Shown in pieces: positions 3,564-32,673 of a DNA stretch of 46,119 bases (the first letter of the stretch is position 1; the number at the start of each line of letters is the position of its first letter). The notes beneath the pieces were generated by a model, which was not told the DNA's origin, ran no database searches, and was given only the letters and a program-made list of their open reading frames with translations. Origin of the DNA: a virus. Both the position numbers and the translations under genes were made by a program. Location of the stretch: positions 64,001-110,119 of the IMG/VR virus record IMGVR_UViG_3300037087_000772, one strand, 5' to 3'.

Positions 3564-4574
3564 TCATTCCTCTTTTTTCTTTTCATTTGCTGGTTTGAAT
3601 CTCCATTTAAACCAATAATAATTGTTTTTCTCGATGTAATAGGTTTTATCTTTTATTTTTAACACAATGAAAGGATCATTATTTTGATCTTCGTTGTGTC
3701 CTAAGACTTCAACTATTTTCCCTTCTTTTAAAAAGAATTGTCTACCCATTTCATCTCGAACAGGATTATTGTCCTTCAAATTTATATAAAGAGCTGATTC
3801 TGGTTTAAACCATTTAACCAATTTTTTATACAAATAATTGTTCAATTTTAAAAAATACTCTCTATCAATATAAGGATAACGAGATTCATTCAATAATTCA
3901 GGACAGGTTAAGGCTGGTGGTTTATTCAAACCATTAAAATTTTTAAAAGCTCCGAAAAATTCTTCTTCATTAAATTCAAAAGACAGATAAACATCAAGTT
4001 TTAAAGATTCATTCTGAACCATCCTTAATATCTTCATATTTTTATAATTAACACTATCTTCAAGGAATATATCACTTCTTTTATTGAACCTCGGATCATT
4101 GAATAAATCTTTGGCCATTTTCTGAGACATCTGCATTAATTTATTAGAAGTTCCGGCTGAACGAGCATATTGATCAACATACGGTCTATTATCATCACTA
4201 TAAATAGATAAACTTGGATCTTGAGCAAATCCATAACCCGGACCAAATGGTGTTTGAACTTCTCCACCCATTAAGTATTGATTGAACTCAGATGATTCTA
4301 CTATAATAAAATCCATAAAATCTTCAAATTTTGTAATCATTTGTTCATCTATTTTTTCGAATTGAATCTGTTGATCTTTTAATTTTCCAAGTTGTGTAAG
4401 ATTAACGGTCTCAATATCACCAATTTTCTCCGCACTTCTCATATAACACAATCTTTTTAAAATAATAGACAATTGTTTCTTCTTAGCTTCTTCTGATTGT
4501 GGTGAACCAATACCACCACCATCCCATCCATTAGGATATCCTGTAATCTTTATTTTAAATGTTGTCTTACCCAT
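3564..4574 (-). CDS. Hypothetical protein with an internal tag-like segment
   Basis: A 336-residue protein. The frame is open to a GTG at 4607, but the ATG at 4574 (MGKTTFKIKITG) is preferred because a TATATA box lies between the two. No domain is recognised. It contains a glycine-rich early segment (GWDGGGIGS) and MITKFEDFMDFIIVES, which resembles the N-terminal tag but sits about 80 residues in. The C-terminal 70 residues (VLKIKDKTYYIEKNNYYWFKW) look like a small beta-domain. First gene of the minus-strand run leading into two tagged proteins and divergent from the tagged gene at 4644, so a virion-related role is plausible. Confidence 0.65.
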   Translation of the reverse strand: MGKTTFKIKITGYPNGWDGGGIGSPQSEEAKKKQLSIILKRLCYMRSAEKIGDIETVNLTQLGKLKDQQIQFEKIDEQMITKFEDFMDFIIVESSEFNQYLMGGEVQTPFGPGYGFAQDPSLSIYSDDNRPYVDQYARSAGTSNKLMQMSQKMAKDLFNDPRFNKRSDIFLEDSVNYKNMKILRMVQNESLKLDVYLSFEFNEEEFFGAFKNFNGLNKPPALTCPELLNESRYPYIDREYFLKLNNYLYKKLVKWFKPESALYINLKDNNPVRDEMGRQFFLKEGKIVEVLGHNEDQNNDPFIVLKIKDKTYYIEKNNYYWFKWRFKPANEKKKEE

Positions 4575-4581
4575 AATTTTC

Positions 4582-4622
4582 TTTATATATAAATTTTGTA
4601 TTTTCACTTTTTAATATATACT
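4582..4622. promoter_or_regulatory. Divergent TATATA promoter region
   Basis: The plus-strand box TTTTTAATATATACT (4608-4622) lies 21 nt before the ATG at 4644. On the minus strand TTTATATATAAAG (4582-4594) lies 7 nt before the ATG at 4574, and the near-palindromic plus box could also serve the minus gene at 36 nt. These boxes set the start choice for both flanking genes. Confidence 0.5.
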
Positions 4623-7465: not shown

Positions 7466-7720
7466 ATGAACTCAGAATTAAAAAGAAGGTTTTTCCTTCA
7501 GAAAATTGAAGATTTCAAATCAGATAATTGTCAACCATATCCGACAGTTATTTGTGAAATGGAGCGATCTAATATTATTGAAATAATAAGAAAAAATGTT
7601 CTTTTTTCAACTATAATGAAACCGTGTACTTCATCTAATTTTAATCCAGAAGTAAAAGAAGTATTAGGAAAAGCATCAAATGACTTTGGTGATTTATATA
7701 TTTTAGTATATCCGAATTAA
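7466..7720 (+). CDS. Small hypothetical protein, likely early gene
   Basis: An 84-residue protein. A longer frame begins at 7445, but that ATG touches the -7 box, so the ATG at 7466 (MNSELKRRFFLQKIEDF) is preferred. No domain is recognised. It is one of few plus-strand genes here with a host-type rather than TATATA promoter, suggesting expression soon after infection. Its 3' end overlaps the end of the convergent gene by 4 nt. Confidence 0.6.
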   Translation: MNSELKRRFFLQKIEDFKSDNCQPYPTVICEMERSNIIEIIRKNVLFSTIMKPCTSSNFNPEVKEVLGKASNDFGDLYILVYPN

Positions 7721-8454
7721 TCCTCAAATTTTTCGATCCCAATTACATTGTATTTTCCATCCTCTTTCAGAGTAATTTCATTTTCATCTGGAAAATATAA
7801 GTTATTTATAATAGTTTCATTTACATCTATTTGATCTTTTGTTGTTTCTATTTCAACAATGAATCCGTTGTGATCTTCATTCGCCATTATTGAATTCAGA
7901 AAATCATGATCTATATCTCCTTTTCTTGTAACATAATGTACACCCAATTGATGCTGTTTAATTTTACTTTCATCTTCCACATCAAGATATCTGAATAAGT
8001 GTAACTGACTTGGAATATTCTTGAATCCTATTGGATAATTTAATTCTGTTTTATCCAAACAATTCTGAATACTTTGTTCGGCTGTCCAACCCACTTGACT
8101 ACTATCGGTTAAAGTTGCCATTATTTTTTCCAAATCCAGTTTGGTTATATTACCGAAAGATTTTACAGTATGTTTTTTTGGTTCTTTTAACAATATAGGA
8201 ACATCACTTTTTTTGATTATGAAATCATATTCAAAATAATCGAATTTTCTATATTTTATCTTATTCAGTTTGAATTTGGTTCTCAATATTCCGGCATTTT
8301 CCCTACCATTTGTGAATATCAAAACTTCATCATTCTTTAATCTATTTAAATATTTTCCCCAATTCTTTTTTACATCACTATAAGAATAAATAGTAAATCC
8401 ATCTTTCTCTTTTGCTTCATTAATAAAATTTTCAAATAGTAATAAATATTTCAT
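7717..8454 (-). CDS. Tagged ADP-ribosyltransferase-like protein (Alt-like candidate)
   Basis: A 245-residue protein starting MKYLLLFENFINEAKEKD, with the tag and an INE site. The C-terminal 100 residues fit the R-S-E class of mono-ADP-ribosyltransferases: R155 in a strand (LHLFRYLDV), a GVHYVT segment (171-176) at the usual S-T-S position, NGFIVEIETT, then E224-N-E226 followed by ITLKEDGKYNVIGI, like the E-x-E strand and its partner. The central S is replaced by V/T. In T4, Alt is a tagged, packaged ADP-ribosyltransferase that modifies host RNA polymerase, so this would be a functional analogue. The family assignment is from residue pattern only. Residues 20-140 are unrecognised. Confidence 0.5.
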   Translation of the reverse strand: MKYLLLFENFINEAKEKDGFTIYSYSDVKKNWGKYLNRLKNDEVLIFTNGRENAGILRTKFKLNKIKYRKFDYFEYDFIIKKSDVPILLKEPKKHTVKSFGNITKLDLEKIMATLTDSSQVGWTAEQSIQNCLDKTELNYPIGFKNIPSQLHLFRYLDVEDESKIKQHQLGVHYVTRKGDIDHDFLNSIMANEDHNGFIVEIETTKDQIDVNETIINNLYFPDENEITLKEDGKYNVIGIEKFED

Positions 8455-8457
8455 GAT

Positions 8458-8495
8458 GATATATATTAAAAGTGGTTTGTGAAATTAATATATAA
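8458..8495. promoter_or_regulatory. Divergent TATATA promoter region
   Basis: The plus box TTAATATATAA at 8485-8495 lies 19 nt before the ATG at 8515. On the minus strand TTTTAATATATATC (8458-8471) lies 3 nt before the ATG at 8454; the palindromic plus box could also act leftwards at 30 nt. Confidence 0.5.
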
Positions 8496-8514
8496 CGAAA
8501 AACAATTCTTTCTC

Positions 8515-12551: not shown

Positions 12552-12785
12552 ATGGAATACACAGAGGAAAATATTTTTGATTGGTATAATTTACAACCAA
12601 TTGATAACCCTTTATCAGAATGTTTCGGATGTGAAGCTAATATGTGTGATTATGGTTCAAGAATACCATATTGTACTATGGATCAATACGATTATAAAGC
12701 TGGAAATTGGAAACCCAATTTTGAAGATTCTGTGAATAGATGGAGAGAAATGAAACTTAATGAAATTTTAAACGAAGAATCTTAA
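12552..12785 (+). CDS. Small Cys-containing protein
   Basis: A 77-residue acidic protein with four cysteines in the first half (CFGCEANMC, then PYCTMDQYDY), arranged so they could bind zinc. No family is recognised. Tightly follows the membrane-anchored gene, suggesting co-expression. Confidence 0.65.
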   Translation: MEYTEENIFDWYNLQPIDNPLSECFGCEANMCDYGSRIPYCTMDQYDYKAGNWKPNFEDSVNRWREMKLNEILNEES

Positions 12786-12831
12786 ACTTTTAATTTTAGT
12801 AGGAATATAAATTTAAAAATAATTTTCAATT

Positions 12832-13296
12832 ATGGCAGAATTACAAAAAACAAGTGAAGATGTTATTCAATATTTTGAAAACATAGAAAAAAATTTAGCA
12901 CATGCTTTTGATGTGAAGTATGTCTTTGTGACAAATGACAAATCAAAGAAGTTAATTAAGGTAAGTAAATTATCAGATCCGTTTTTATTTTTATTGAACG
13001 CTCATATTTTAGTTACTTTCAATGAAAAATTCTTTGAAAATTTCGATGACCAAGAAAAAGAAATTCTTATAAGTCAGGAATTGGATAAAATTGAATGTGA
13101 TGCTGAAAAAGGTCAAGTAAAAATAAATTCCAATCCGTTAATTTCGACTTCAAGTGGAATCATTGAAAAATTCACCTTGGAACTTGTCAAAAACGCTAAT
13201 AAATTAGAACGAGAATATTTGGCACAATTAAAAGAAAAGGAAAAAGAAGAAAAGGCCGCTAAAGGTGGTGGGAAAAAAGGTAGAAAAAGATTCTAA
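12832..13296 (+). CDS. Degenerate phage metallopeptidase-like protein
   Basis: A 154-residue protein resembling the putative phage metallopeptidase family (PF18894 type): a strand ILVTFNEKFFENF, then DDQEKEILISQELDKIECD where active members have HELxH, then KINSNPLIS. Both metal-binding histidines are missing (QELDK), so it is probably catalytically dead and structural. The C-terminus is a lysine/glycine-rich basic tail (KGGGKKGRKRF) that could bind nucleic acid. It heads a compact run with the genes at 13318 and 13670. Confidence 0.45.
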   Translation: MAELQKTSEDVIQYFENIEKNLAHAFDVKYVFVTNDKSKKLIKVSKLSDPFLFLLNAHILVTFNEKFFENFDDQEKEILISQELDKIECDAEKGQVKINSNPLISTSSGIIEKFTLELVKNANKLEREYLAQLKEKEKEEKAAKGGGKKGRKRF

Positions 13297-19608: not shown

Positions 19609-19981
19609 ATTTATTAAACTACCAATATCTGGTAGAAGAATTAAGAAGTCCGAAATCGTCTATTACAATAAAGATGGAATAAGATTGTACTATCGTTTAA
19701 AACACAGAGCCGATAGTATTTATATTAATTATTCAACAGAAGAAGATATACAAGCTGATCTTAAAAAATTCGATGAGATATATTTCGATTCGGAAAGAAA
19801 AGGACTTGATGAACCTATAAGAAAGATTCTTAGTCAATTTTTCATTGATATTTATTCGGATGTGAGAAATGATGGTAAATTATTAGGAACAGACGATATA
19901 CTTGAAAAATTAAATAAGTCCGAAAAAGTGAACGATAATGTTCAAAAAATAAAAGAATTATTTTATGGGAAAACTGATTGA
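19598..19981 (+). CDS. Hypothetical protein
   Basis: A 127-residue protein, basic at the N-terminus and helical at the C-terminus, unrecognised. It overlaps its neighbours at both ends (11 and 17 nt), so the 19237-20423 genes are probably one transcription unit. Confidence 0.6.
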   Translation: MENKFIKLPISGRRIKKSEIVYYNKDGIRLYYRLKHRADSIYINYSTEEDIQADLKKFDEIYFDSERKGLDEPIRKILSQFFIDIYSDVRNDGKLLGTDDILEKLNKSEKVNDNVQKIKELFYGKTD

Positions 19982-20423
19982 TAAATTTATTGATGAAGAA
20001 TTCTTTCTAAGTAATTTTTATATTAGTCCAATAATTTATAAAGGAAAAGAATATAAAACCGTTGAACATGCTTTCCAAGCATCAAAAGCTGATAACGAAT
20101 CGGAACATGAATGGATTCGTAATATGGATACTCCCGGAAAAGCAAAAAGAAATGGTTCAGATCCACATAAAGTTCACCTGAGAAAAGATTGGGAAGAAAT
20201 AAAAGAGGATTTGATGTTGGAATTACTTCGAATCAAATTTTCAGATCCAGAATTATCAAAAAAATTAATTGATACAAAAAATTATATACTGGTTGAGGGG
20301 AATTATTGGCATGATAATTTTTGGGGCAATTGTACCTGTTCAAATTGTAGAAATATTGAGGGTCAAAATAAATTAGGTGAATTACTAATGAAAGTTCGAC
20401 AAGAAATTATTGATTTGTTGTAA
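19965..20423 (+). CDS. NADAR-domain N-glycosidase (YbiA-like)
   Basis: A 152-residue NADAR/YbiA-fold protein. Landmarks are FFLSNFYISP (13-22), YKTVEHAFQASK (30-41) with catalytic-type E34, PGKAKRNG, DWEEIKEDLMLELLRIKF and the closing LVEGNYWHDNFWG. A small Cys-rich insertion (CTCSNC) follows. NADAR enzymes cleave N-glycosidic bonds; known activities are on riboflavin intermediates and removal of ADP-ribose from guanine. With candidate ADP-ribosyltransferases in the same phage, a role in reversing ADP-ribosylation is attractive but inferred. Confidence 0.88.
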   Translation: MGKLIDKFIDEEFFLSNFYISPIIYKGKEYKTVEHAFQASKADNESEHEWIRNMDTPGKAKRNGSDPHKVHLRKDWEEIKEDLMLELLRIKFSDPELSKKLIDTKNYILVEGNYWHDNFWGNCTCSNCRNIEGQNKLGELLMKVRQEIIDLL

Positions 20424-23411: not shown

Positions 23412-25319
23412 TTATTTTACTTCAGTGAATTCTACATCCTGAACATCCTCTGGTGGTTGTTTTGGTCCTTTTTGAGTTTCACCAGATGTATTCTGTTGTT
23501 GAGTTGTTTCACCACCCTGACTCTGTTGGTACATTTTCGTAGAAATAGAATTCCACTTTTCATTCAGTTCGTTTGTAAGACTATCAACTGTTGGAATGTC
23601 CTTTATGGAATGTGCCTGTCTGAGTTTATCAAGAGTTTCCTTTAATGTAGTTCTATCACTTTCAGTTAATTTCTCTCCAAAATCTTTGATGTTTTTTTCA
23701 CTCTGGAAAATTGAGGCATCTGCTTTATTAAGTTTATCAATATCATCCTTTTCTTTCTTGTCCTTTTCTTCATTTTCCTGAGCTTCCCTTTTCATCCTTT
23801 CAATTTCATCCTTGGATAAATTTGAAGAACCTTCAATACGGATATTCTGTTTCTTCTGAGTTGCTTTGTCAACAGCCAAGACTTCGATGATACCGTTCGC
23901 GTTGATATCCAACGAAACACTGATTTGCGGCACGCCTCGTGGTGCTGGTGGTAATCCATCCAATATAAATTTTCCTAAGGATTTATTATCCTTAGCCATT
24001 GGACGCTCCCCTTGAAGAACATGAATCTCTACGGATGGTTGATTATCAGCGGCCGTTGAAAAAACTTCAGTTTTTGATACTGGAATTGTAGTATTAGCTT
24101 CAACCAATTTTGTGAATACCCCACCGAATGTTTCAATTCCAAGTGAAAGAGGGGTAACATCAAGTAATAAAATATCCTTTACTTCACCACCAATAATACC
24201 AGCTTGGATGGCTGCTCCAACGGCAACGGCTTCATCAGGATTAACTGATCGGTTTGGTTCTTTTCCGAAAATACTTTTAACAAGTGTCTGAACGGCTGGA
24301 ATTCTTGTTGAACCACCGACCAAAACGATTTCATCCAGTTCTTCTTTTTTCAAACCACTATCCTCAAGGGCTTTTCTTGAAATAGGAATCAATCTCTGGA
24401 AAATAGGATCACAAATTTGATCGAATTTGGCTCTGTTAAGTTTTACAACCATGTGTTTAGGAACACCATCAATCGGCATTATATAAGGTAGGTTGATTTC
24501 TGTTTCAACAGAAGAAGAAAGTTCAATCTTAGCTTTCTCGGCTGCATCTTTTAATCTTTGGAGTGCCATCGGATCTTTCTTTAAATCCACACCACCATTT
24601 TCTTTTCTGAATCCCTCATTCAACCAATCTACAATAGCATCATCAATATCATTACCTCCAAGGTGGACATCACCATAAGTTGATTTCACCTCAAAAACAC
24701 CTTCACCTGATTCAAGAACAGACACATCGAATGTACCACCACCAAAGTCGAACACAACAATCTTCATATCCTTGTTCTGTTTGTCCAATCCGTAAGCGAG
24801 AGCTGCGGCCGTTGGTTCATTTACTATCCTTTCAACTTTGAAACCAGCGATTTCACCAGCCTCTTTAGTCGCCTGTCTTTGTTCATTATTAAACCAAGCC
24901 GGAACAGTAATAACTGCTCTGTCTACGGTTTGACCAAGATAATCCTCGGCTGTTTTCTTCATTTTTTGAAGAATCATTGCACTGATTTCCTGAGGGGTGA
25001 AATCTTTACCATCAATACTGACAACAGGATTACCATTACTTGCCCTTTTAACAGGAAATGATACCCTTTTGATTTCATCGGTCAATTTTTCGTATTTCTC
25101 ACCCATGAATCTTTTAATGGATGATATTGTTCTTGGACTGTTAGTTACCTGTTGACGGCGAGCTGGTGCTCCTACTTTTCTTTCACTATCAATGAAAGCT
25201 ACAATACTCGGTGTGGTTCTTTGTCCTTCACTGTTTGCGATAATAACGGGAACTCCGCCTTCCATTACAGCAACGGCACTAAAAGTAGTTCCTAAGTCGA
25301 TTCCTACAATTTTACTCAT
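23412..25319 (-). CDS. dnaK: Chaperone DnaK (Hsp70)
   Basis: A 635-residue full-length Hsp70. The nucleotide-binding domain starts [20 protein letters not shown] (TTF-S where most bacteria have TTN-S). Phosphate-2 [13 protein letters not shown] and [11 protein letters not shown] are intact. The substrate-binding domain begins at [14 protein letters not shown], followed by a helical lid and the C-terminal [11 protein letters not shown] for cofactor interaction. No DnaJ or GrpE is adjacent. Its base composition is clearly less AT-rich than surrounding genes, pointing to acquisition from a bacterium or selection for expression. It probably aids folding or assembly of phage proteins, or substitutes for host DnaK. 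Confidence 0.98.
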
Positions 25320-30198: not shown

Positions 30199-31146
30199 AT
30201 GATTATTACTGAATTCAACAAATTTAACAAAAGGAATGTGGTGAGCTTCGATTTTGATGGAGTGCTTCATTTAAGTATGATTCCCGGCACGATCCATCCT
30301 GCTGATTGGATCAATTATAAGACATGGATACCGAGTAAAAAATTACACGGAATTTTAAAAAAAGAACATCAGAATGGTAATAAAATAATCGTAATTAGTG
30401 CTCGTGATAAAAAATTTTATGATTTTAATAAACCAGATTTCAATTGGGACTCCCCACCATTAGACATGAAAAAGATCATGATGAAATTTATGAAATTATA
30501 TCAATTACCAGTGGATGATATAATTTTAACTGACAATGGTCCAAAAAAGCAAATTTTAATTGATATGAAGGCCATAAGACATTATGATGATAATATTGAT
30601 ATGGAACGAGAATTAAAAGATACTAATATTGAATTTGTATATGTTTATAATGATAAAATAGTAAGAAGAATTAAAAATAAAGGTAATAATATTTCTGAGG
30701 AAAAAATTATTGATAGTGAAACGATTGGGGAAATTCAAAAGCATATTGCTGATGGAACGAAAAATGACAAACCAATATTAACACCTGACGGTAAAAATGT
30801 GTATGTGATTCGAGCTGTTCAAAAAGGAGAATTTGATCATGTTATGAATAAAGGTGGGGTATCTGGAACATTCTGGGGAACTGAAATAAGTTATCGTAGT
30901 AATTATTATTTTATTAAACCAGATTCAGGATATGATAAAAGTTGGTCTTTTAGCCTTGACTTCAATCCAACCATTAGTAATTGGCCAGATGAACCTCGTA
31001 TTGAAAAACCAAATCCAAATTATAGACTACCAAACAAATTAATAGATCATTTTCAGGAAGTAGGTAGAAGAAGTGCCGTATCCTTAGAGGATATTTCCTA
31101 TATCTTAGATTCAAAAGGAGAAATTGTATATGATAAAGGAATTTAA
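30199..31146 (+). CDS. HAD-family phosphatase with unknown C-terminal domain, possibly tagged
   Basis: A 315-residue protein. The N-terminal HAD domain has motif I VVSFDFDGVLH (D18, D20), motif II IIVISARD and motif IV-like ILTDNGPKKQILIDMKAIRHYDDN. This suggests a phosphatase of the polynucleotide or nucleotidase kind; no kinase P-loop is present. The first residues MIITEFNKFNKRN resemble a weak version of the packaging tag. The C-terminal 145 residues are a separate, unrecognised beta-rich domain. It overlaps the tagged ADP-ribosyltransferase-like gene after it by 17 nt, so all three genes form one operon. Confidence 0.7.
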   Translation: MIITEFNKFNKRNVVSFDFDGVLHLSMIPGTIHPADWINYKTWIPSKKLHGILKKEHQNGNKIIVISARDKKFYDFNKPDFNWDSPPLDMKKIMMKFMKLYQLPVDDIILTDNGPKKQILIDMKAIRHYDDNIDMERELKDTNIEFVYVYNDKIVRRIKNKGNNISEEKIIDSETIGEIQKHIADGTKNDKPILTPDGKNVYVIRAVQKGEFDHVMNKGGVSGTFWGTEISYRSNYYFIKPDSGYDKSWSFSLDFNPTISNWPDEPRIEKPNPNYRLPNKLIDHFQEVGRRSAVSLEDISYILDSKGEIVYDKGI

Positions 31147-31729
31147 AATATTTGAAAGTAAACAGATTGGTGTGTTATATCATTTCACTACTTTGAGTAG
31201 CCTTTTCGACATGATACTTCGAGCAAGATATGTAACAAGTGAGGAAAACAAAATATTTCTCAAATTCGGATATAAAACAAATATTTCTCTCAGTAGAAAT
31301 TTTAATATGAAATCATCAGAATTAAAAATTGAAAAACAATGTGTAAGAATAGTCATCAATGGAGATAAATTATCAAATCATTATAAAATTGAACCTTTTT
31401 CAGATCCAATATATGATAAAACTCGTTCAGAAAGAGAAGAAAGAATTATGAGAGGTAGAAGAGATGATGTCGCCGATATTACAAATTATATCATTCAAAT
31501 TGATGTTTTAAAAAATCCAGTATTAGCTGATCTTTATCCTTGGAAGCCTATTAATTCATACACTTTTTCAGATCCGAAAAATACTCAATTAAAAATAAGT
31601 GTATCCGAAACAGATGAAATCATTAGATTATATGAAATGTATTTGAAAGAAACCCTAAGATTTTTCGGTTTTTGTAAATTCAACTTTAAAATTAATGTAG
31701 TTGATAAAATGAATCCTGTTCGACTATGA
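31130..31729 (+). CDS. Tagged ADP-ribosyltransferase-like protein, copy 1
   Basis: A 199-residue protein from the ATG at 31130 (MIKEFKIFESKQ). After the tag comes VLYHFTTLSSLFDMIL with H18, then ISLSRN (S53, S55, R56), VRIVINGDKLSNHYKIEPF and EREERIM (E101, E103, E104). The H ... SxSR ... E order and the YHFT start recall DarT/PARP-like ADP-ribosyltransferases and an uncharacterised phage family. The next gene aligns with it at all these points. Inferred as a packaged effector that may modify host macromolecules; activity is not established. Confidence 0.5.
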   Translation: MIKEFKIFESKQIGVLYHFTTLSSLFDMILRARYVTSEENKIFLKFGYKTNISLSRNFNMKSSELKIEKQCVRIVINGDKLSNHYKIEPFSDPIYDKTRSEREERIMRGRRDDVADITNYIIQIDVLKNPVLADLYPWKPINSYTFSDPKNTQLKISVSETDEIIRLYEMYLKETLRFFGFCKFNFKINVVDKMNPVRL

Positions 31730-32673
31730 TAACAGATTTTAAAATATTCGAAAGTAAAAATATACAGAATCTTTATCATATATTGGATACTGAAAAATTA
31801 TACTATGTCTTAAAGAATAACGAAATCACATCTTATAAATTTCACTATATATCAACCACGAGAAATAAAATGATGAATGGGTATACTGGTGATAACTCAA
31901 CTTCAATTTTTAAACTTGAATTGGATGGTCCGAAATTGACAGACAATTATAAAATGAAATCATTTCAAGACAGTGGGTGGGAACTTGGTACAGATAATGA
32001 AAGAACTCATTTTTATCATCAGGAATGGGAAGAACAAATACAAACCAATAAAATTAAAAACGCAAAAAAGTACATTGTCAAAATAATATTACTGAAAAAC
32101 AGGATAGATAGATTGAAAGATAGTTCATGGTTCGAAAATCATTTTAGTGAAAGAGGTAGAAAATCAAAATGGATAAATTTACCTGATATATTGAAAGACA
32201 TCATCGACAAATATAAAATAGAACTCTGGGTTCAGGATGGTTCAGTAATCAAAAAAGACGATGAATATGTAAATAGTATCATCAATTATGATGTCAGAAA
32301 AAAATATCATGGATTTGCTTTATATTGGAGGGGATATATTACCCAGAAAGATAGATTTGGTTATTTGGAAAAAACTTTACCATTGGATAAAAGAAATCCA
32401 AAAATAGAAAAACTGGTAGTCGGATATACATATGATAATCTCTGGGTGAAATCAAAATTAGATATATCAAAGAATCTTATAAAAAACAGACCAAAAATAT
32501 TCAAAGCGGAAGCATCATTAAACATCTTCAATTTCGAATATGATGAAGATGATATTCTCAAAAAAGAGGGTGATTTTATTCTTTTAAAACAAGGTAAATT
32601 AAAAGAAATAGATCCAATTCAGAAATATGATTACGCTTGGGATAGAGAAATGGTACTCGATACAGAATTTTAA
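31726..32673 (+). CDS. Tagged ADP-ribosyltransferase-like protein, copy 2
   Basis: A 315-residue paralogue of the gene before it. The tag MITDFKIFESKN is followed by NLYHILDTEKLYYVL (H18), ISTTRN (S43, R46), LELDGPKLTDNYKMKSF and EWEEQI (E100, E102, E103). The matching positions keep the same order and spacing. It carries an extra C-terminal region of about 150 residues, which is beta-rich and unrecognised. The ATG overlaps the preceding stop (ATGA). Probably a diversified packaged effector. Confidence 0.5.
   Translation: MITDFKIFESKNIQNLYHILDTEKLYYVLKNNEITSYKFHYISTTRNKMMNGYTGDNSTSIFKLELDGPKLTDNYKMKSFQDSGWELGTDNERTHFYHQEWEEQIQTNKIKNAKKYIVKIILLKNRIDRLKDSSWFENHFSERGRKSKWINLPDILKDIIDKYKIELWVQDGSVIKKDDEYVNSIINYDVRKKYHGFALYWRGYITQKDRFGYLEKTLPLDKRNPKIEKLVVGYTYDNLWVKSKLDISKNLIKNRPKIFKAEASLNIFNFEYDEDDILKKEGDFILLKQGKLKEIDPIQKYDYAWDREMVLDTEF

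What the first reader, a model, noticed from the sequence alone, without database searches (positions are those of the whole stretch)
7717..8454. Tagged R-S-E ADP-ribosyltransferase candidate, an Alt analogue
A tag followed by R155, a GVHYVT segment and E224-N-E226 in the order of R-S-E transferases. T4 Alt is also a packaged ADP-ribosyltransferase. If correct, the same infection strategy is used in a Bacteroidetes phage by a very divergent protein.
Basis: partly seen in the sequence, partly recalled or inferred. Interest (0 to 1): 0.7.

Follow-up and report, generated by a model that had tools for sequence, protein, structure and literature searches.

The report
Tagged phage cargo protein, ART unproven
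A very large bacterial virus carries a gene whose protein begins with a 'pack me into the virus head' tag like that of phage T4, so it is probably injected into the host with the viral DNA; whether its tail end really is the proposed ADP-ribosylating enzyme could not be shown.

Summary
The ORF (7717-8454, minus, 245 aa) and the named residues are real. The contig is a 110-kb fragment of a Mahaphage-type huge phage, with a T4-type portal, gp23-like capsid protein and gp21-like (S77) prohead protease.

The tag is the solid part. MKYLLLFENFINE|A matches the T4 IPII/IPIII capsid-targeting sequence MKTYQEFIAE|A in the spacing that matters in T4 (targeting residues 4/7, cleavage residues 8/10). The pattern occurs in 13 of 168 N-termini here (shuffled mean 0.44, maximum 4 in 1000 trials) and 42 of 507 in the 735-kb relative. 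Tagged genes include two Pfam ART-PolyVal proteins, so 'tagged ARTs in this phage' holds for other genes.

For this protein ART is plausible but unproven. A loose R...S/T...ExE pattern occurs at chance rate (115 real, 126 shuffled). The C-terminal domain is homologous to small tagged proteins of other huge phages; R155 and GxxYVxxKGDID are kept but E224-x-E226 is not. Structure predictions failed (pLDDT 40 and 45), and no fold or profile match to an ART appeared.

Best reading: an accessory, capsid-targeted, injected cargo protein with a divergent, possibly ART-like C-terminal domain. It is an Alt analogue by delivery, not demonstrably by chemistry.

The parts
7717..8454 (-). The candidate cargo ORF, 245 aa (P0001)
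   Evidence: single copy in the contig
8416..8454 (-). N-terminal tag MKYLLLFENFINE (residues 1-13), capsid-targeting-sequence-like, with predicted prohead-protease cut after E13 (INE|A)
   Evidence: Same spacing as T4 IPII/IPIII MKTYQEFIAE|A; enrichment at N-termini; T4 CTS rules from PMC9026906
8287..8394 (-). Residues 21-56, weak Phd/YefM-like segment (beta-helix-helix-beta-beta)
   Evidence: Pfam PF02604 E=0.0017, 18.5 bits against a cut-off of 29.8; not confirmed by NCBIfam or PDB searches
7720..8004 (-). Residues 151-245, C-terminal domain shared with small tagged proteins of other huge phages; ART-like by motif only
7990..7992 (-). R155 codon (LFR), aligned with R32 (LYR) of the relatives
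7927..7944 (-). GVHYVT (171-176), followed by RKGDID; the G, Y, V and KGDID positions are conserved in relatives
7777..7785 (-). E224-N-E226; aligned with N-D-S in the relatives (not conserved)
8460..8468 (-). TAATATATA promoter-like element just upstream of the start codon; the same element lies about 25-35 nt upstream of other genes, including the capsid gene

Best explanation
It is an accessory gene for an internal (capsid-targeted) protein of a Mahaphage-type huge phage. The N-terminal 13 residues work like the T4 capsid-targeting sequence: they bring the protein into the prohead core and are cut off after INE by the phage's gp21-family protease, and the rest is injected with the DNA. Inside the host the protein acts early on a host target. 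The most likely single activity for the C-terminal 95 residues is that of a small, very divergent ART-superfamily domain (R155, the HYVT strand, E226) using NAD. The tag and its similarity to the T4 sequence are shown. Packaging, cleavage and injection are inferred. The ART activity is a hypothesis.
For: Tag identity and enrichment. T4-type portal, gp23 and S77 protease in the same contig. I-N-E motif near the capsid protein N-terminus in this phage, with [I/M/L]NE-like motifs in relatives. Every relative of the C-terminal domain also carries an N-terminal tag-like segment directly before it. The gene sits on the opposite strand inside a block that is conserved in the 735-kb phage, where the gene is absent, so it behaves as an accessory insert. 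Tagged ART-PolyVal proteins occur in the same contig. The spacing R155-21-T176-50-E226 and the C-terminal run ENEITLKEDGKYNVI look like an ART (sequence). Relatives sit next to NadR/PnuC NAD-salvage genes. A NADAR gene is in the window.
Against: The R-S-E order is expected by chance. ExE is lost in all detectable relatives. No ART profile, fold or PDB match. The residue after R155 is Y (L in P0002) rather than the RG seen in ModA/ModB. No virion proteomics exists for this phage. The tag also sits on metabolic enzymes (PPK2, DeoC, methyltransferase), so tag-means-effector is not automatic.
Confidence: 0.42

Rival explanations
1. It is a capsid-targeted, injected cargo protein, but the C-terminal domain is not an ART. 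It works like T4 IPI or IPII by binding and blocking a host defence protein or DNA, possibly through the Phd/YefM-like N-terminal segment, with no NAD chemistry.
For: T4-type internal proteins with a known role are small inhibitors of restriction enzymes (PMC12373910; PMC9026906). The catalytic glutamates are not conserved. A Phd/YefM-like segment has E=0.0017. No ART profile or fold match.
Against: R155 is kept in the relatives together with the YV..KGDID strand. The C-terminal sequence pattern resembles ARTs in order, spacing and the strand after ExE. Other tagged proteins in the phage are ARTs.
Confidence: 0.38
2. It is a degenerate or altered ART-family domain: the ART fold is present, but the family as a whole no longer does R-S-E mono-ADP-ribosylation and instead binds NAD/ADP-ribose or does another reaction on NAD, as the RES family does with Y and N in place of S and E.
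For: Relatives keep R and Y in the first two motifs and have N-D-S where P0001 has E-N-E. The RES precedent with Y and N is described in PMC9503650. The P0002 branch lies beside NadR/PnuC genes.
Against: P0001 itself has an intact ExE. The fold is unproven. No match to any RES model appeared in the family searches.
Confidence: 0.12
3. The tag is not a packaging signal but some other sorting or interaction peptide of huge phages, and this is a non-virion protein.
For: Tagged proteins include PPK2, DeoC, a methyltransferase and a DnaJ-domain protein. No virion proteome exists.
Against: Position-for-position match to the T4 sequence, presence of the matching S77 protease, and an I-N-E motif near the capsid protein N-terminus.
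Confidence: 0.08

Closest known systems
T4 internal proteins IPI/IPII/IPIII and their capsid-targeting sequence
   Same: N-terminal [FY]xx[FY][IL]xE| signal of about 10 residues directly before diverse mature proteins; gp21-family protease and T4-type head genes in the same contig
   Different: Tagged genes number at least 13 in 110 kb here and 42 in about 490 kb of the 735-kb relative, and they carry enzymes; T4 carries three IPs
T4 Alt (packaged ADP-ribosyltransferase)
   Same: Inferred: packaged in the head by a T4-type core, cleaved by the prohead protease, injected at infection
   Different: No ART-family profile or fold match was obtained; Alt itself was not compared directly (its homologues ModA/ModB were). 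Chemistry unproven. 245 aa versus 682 aa for Alt (Alt length from memory)
ART-PolyVal (Pfam PF18760), ARTs in polyvalent proteins
   Same: Two tagged members in the same contig and seven more in kin contigs, all starting with a tag-like segment
   Different: P0001 does not match this family and has an R...HYVT...ExE rather than YHGT-type motif
P0002 family: 120-127 aa tagged proteins in LR745206 and three IMG/VR contigs, with an interrupted copy in LR756502
   Same: Homologous C-terminal domain (blastp E=1e-6 for the pair; shuffle P about 8e-6) with conserved R, GxxYVxxKGDID; tag in front
   Different: P0002 lacks the roughly 135-residue middle region and the ExE pair

Membership tests
R-S-E clade ADP-ribosyltransferase (Alt/Mod type) | ART fold (split beta-sheet NAD cleft) | tested here: inconclusive
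   AlphaFold2 pLDDT 40 and 45, Foldseek no significant sensible match
R-S-E clade ADP-ribosyltransferase (Alt/Mod type) | Arginine at the end of strand 1, conserved in the family | tested here: met
   R155 aligns with R32 of P0002 and relatives; not followed by G
R-S-E clade ADP-ribosyltransferase (Alt/Mod type) | S-T-S type motif in strand 2 | tested here: inconclusive
   GVHYVT in P0001, GEYYVC in relatives; no S-T-S
R-S-E clade ADP-ribosyltransferase (Alt/Mod type) | Catalytic [E/Q]xE conserved in the family | tested here: not met
   Present in P0001 (ENE) but N-D-S or absent in all detectable relatives
R-S-E clade ADP-ribosyltransferase (Alt/Mod type) | Significant profile similarity to a known ART family | tested here: not met
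   Pfam, PHROGs, NCBIfam and hhalign to ModA/ModB and ART-PolyVal: none; the hhalign test has little power, since ART-PolyVal versus ModA/ModB also failed
R-S-E clade ADP-ribosyltransferase (Alt/Mod type) | NAD-dependent transferase activity | not testable with these tools
   Needs biochemistry
T4-type capsid-targeted internal protein | N-terminal CTS with aromatic residues at the 4/7 spacing and [IL]xE cut site | tested here: met
   LLLFENFINE|A vs KTYQEFIAE|A
T4-type capsid-targeted internal protein | T4-type head with gp21-family protease in the same phage | tested here: met
   Portal_T4 E=1e-64, Gp23 E=1e-27, Peptidase_S77 E=3e-5 (the S77 score of 23.9 is just below Pfam's cut-off of 27; PHROG head maturation protease E=8e-25)
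T4-type capsid-targeted internal protein | Presence in the virion, processed N-terminus | not testable with these tools
   No proteome for this uncultured phage
Phd/YefM antitoxin-like domain (residues 21-56) | Profile match above the curated cut-off | tested here: not met
   18.5 bits against 29.8

The most novel reading that the evidence does not exclude
Mahaphage-type huge phages use a portable T4-type capsid-targeting tag on dozens of unrelated cargo genes (several ART families, a SprT-like protease, a DnaJ-domain protein, a methyltransferase, PPK2, DeoC and small unknowns). The virion would then act as a programmable effector-delivery particle, and this ORF would be one member carrying a new minimal ART family.
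Probability: 0.4. Interest if true: 0.82.

Novelty: new variant of a known kind. Interest (0 to 1): 0.55.

Why it matters
If the tag is a true capsid-targeting sequence, it gives a sequence-only way to list the injected proteome of the largest known phages, for which I found no virion proteome. It would turn dozens of unknown genes into testable candidates for host take-over and anti-defence. It would also show that the T4 internal-protein strategy extends to Bacteroidetes huge phages. Whether this particular domain is an ART decides whether a very reduced ART family exists.

Tried and rejected
tblastn of the protein in 50,697 phage records and pattern scans of viral and genome contigs: no close relative. 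MCP, NadR and profile-guided scans for more relatives: only the P0002 set. A weak hit in Tenacibaculum phage PTm1 to the middle region looks like low-complexity chance. The PDB xylosidase hit (E=0.01-0.08) and the 'Pizza' designed-protein hit to the profile look like short coincidental strand matches. AlphaFold2 on the single sequence (pLDDT 40) and on a four-row alignment (pLDDT 45) failed; Foldseek on both gave nothing usable. hhalign against ModA/ModB, ART-PolyVal and the two other tagged LYH proteins was not significant, but true ART families do not find each other in this test either. A relation between the tag and the TAATATATA element is suggestive only (7/23 tagged vs 19/145 untagged, P=0.056). 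Claiming that all tagged ART-PolyVal proteins have the strict tag was rejected: of nine, three have the strict form, four a FxxFE-type variant, two lack the glutamate, and the variant and FxxF patterns are common by chance.

Full report
What is there. The ORF at 7717-8454 on the minus strand encodes 245 aa. The window is bases 64001-110119 of a 110,119-base IMG/VR virus record, whose remaining 64 kb I read as L002-L005. The gene occurs once.

What phage it is. Outside the window the contig carries a T4-type portal (Portal_T4, E=1e-64), a gp23-type major capsid protein (E=1e-27) and an 818-aa protein with a head maturation protease domain (PHROG E=8e-25; Pfam Peptidase_S77, the T4 gp21 family, E=3e-5 and just below the Pfam cut-off) fused to a scaffold-like region. 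The capsid protein is 68% identical to that of the 735-kb uncultured phage LR756501 and 48-50% to the 634-642-kb phages. These are the Mahaphages of Al-Shayeb et al., predicted to infect Bacteroidetes (PMC7162821).

The tag. The protein begins MKYLLLFENFINEA. T4 IPII and IPIII begin MKTYQEFIAEA (read from the T4 record). In T4 the first ten residues are enough for packaging, positions 4 and 7 matter for targeting, 8 and 10 for processing, and gp21 cuts after L/I-x-E (PMC9026906). The pattern [FY]xx[FY][ILV]xE has exactly this spacing. It occurs near the N-terminus of 13 of 168 called genes of this contig; shuffling the same N-termini gives a mean of 0.44 and never more than 4 in 1000 trials. 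In the held two-thirds of LR756501 a slightly looser pattern is in 42 of 507 N-termini against 45 of 5489 internal windows. The capsid protein of this phage carries HINENVAY near residue 45, and its relatives keep NEN there, so an I-N-E site in a protein expected to be matured matches the INE at the end of the tag; that this is a real cleavage site is inference. T-even phages carry many different internal proteins that share only this N-terminal signal (PMC12373910; PMC3012670), and none of the papers I could search reports the signal in huge phages.

Context. The gene lies on the opposite strand inside a block that is collinear with LR756501. There, homologues of the flanking 645-aa and 1026-aa genes are present, with other tagged proteins between them, but no counterpart of this gene. 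It therefore behaves as an accessory insertion. A TAATATATA-type element, found upstream of the capsid gene and many others, sits just upstream of its start.

Relatives. No close relative was found in phage records, viral contigs or genome contigs. A search of kin genomes found a 120-aa protein in LR745206, with orthologues in three viral contigs and a copy interrupted by a TAA in LR756502. The pairwise similarity is real (BLASTP E=1e-6 for the single comparison; shuffle-derived P about 8e-6). All of these begin with a tag-like segment (MRLKRFNKFKINES, MQITKFTDYVKVNES) followed directly by the shared domain. The domain aligns through R155, then G-x-[HY]-Y-V-x-x-K-G-D-I-D, then the last two strands; E224 and E226 fall on N and S. 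In LR756502 and the viral contigs the gene is beside NadR-like and PnuC-like NAD-salvage genes and a radical SAM gene.

Is it an ART? In favour: order and spacing (R-21-T-50-E), a strand pattern compatible with an ART, and the C-terminal run ENEITLKEDGKYNVI. Against: a loose R...S/T...ExE pattern is found as often in shuffled proteins as in real ones; the glutamates are not a family feature; and no Pfam, PHROG, NCBIfam, PDB, hhalign or Foldseek result points to an ART. AlphaFold2 models are too poor to judge (pLDDT 40 alone, 45 with four rows). The profile comparison has little power, because ART-PolyVal and ModA/ModB did not find each other either. I put the ART reading at about 0.4.

Other tagged ARTs. 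Contig 31707-32216 (minus) is a full ART-PolyVal match (E=2.8e-15) starting MKYLKMFEEYKN, and 12728-13228 (plus) is a second ART-PolyVal protein (E=3.6e-6, below cut-off) starting MIKKFKIFEE. Seven more such proteins in kin contigs also begin with tag-like segments, though only three of the nine have the strict tag. Packaging of ARTs into myovirus heads has been proposed generally (PMC9503650; PMC5512222).

Conclusion. Tagged and probably packaged: yes, by inference from a strong sequence signal. Alt analogue in delivery: likely. Alt analogue in chemistry: open. Membership in the R-S-E ART family is not claimed, because a defining feature (a conserved catalytic ExE) was tested and not met, and the fold could not be tested.

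Noticed in passing
L003:11707-12216 (contig 31707-32216, minus) and L002:12728-13228 (plus), outside the window: Two ART-PolyVal (PF18760) proteins, both starting with tag-like segments (MKYLKMFEEYKN, MIKKFKIFEE); better-supported tagged ARTs than the one in the finding.
   Followed up: partly
window 31130-31729 and 31726-32673 (plus): Two adjacent proteins starting MIKEFKIFESK and MITDFKIFESK, each followed at once by LYH (VLYHFTT..., NLYHIL...); possible H-Y-E type ART-like pair, no family match.
   Followed up: partly
L002:16076-16978 (minus): Tagged protein (MITTFNTFILENN) with IYRG and later YPKRKHALIGT; strong match to phrog_12810 (E=3e-29, unknown function) and to five large-phage records; possible R-S-E ART-like.
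   Followed up: partly
window 19965-20423 (plus): NADAR domain protein (PF08719, E=2e-25), an ADP-ribose/NAD-network enzyme.
   Followed up: no
L002:13612-13962 (minus) and window 23412-25319 (minus): A tagged DnaJ-domain protein (MENLLTFEKFITEMAGKK) and, elsewhere in the same contig, a full HSP70; the pair might suggest a packaged co-chaperone.
   Followed up: no
L081-L089 and L060 (parts of LR756501): About 42 genes with the tag in roughly 490 kb; Pfam-matched proteins in the pooled tagged set include PPK2, DeoC, methyltransferase, radical SAM, SprT-like.
   Followed up: partly
contig-wide, e.g. window about 8487-8496 and upstream of 8983: TTAATATATAAC-type element about 25-35 nt upstream of many starts (26 of 168 genes within 60 nt; 72 copies on both strands of the contig), also before the capsid gene; candidate phage promoter.
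   Followed up: partly
L004 1764-3593 (minus), residues about 40-50: Conserved NEN motif near the N-terminus of the gp23-like protein; candidate maturation site of the prohead protease.
   Followed up: partly
L080:3001-3330 (LR756502): Copy of the P0002-type tagged gene interrupted by a TAA stop; possibly a decaying gene, beside NadR/PnuC.
   Followed up: no
window 3564-4607 and L081 30106-30831: Conserved neighbour (54% identical in LR756501) of unknown function next to the tagged block.
   Followed up: no
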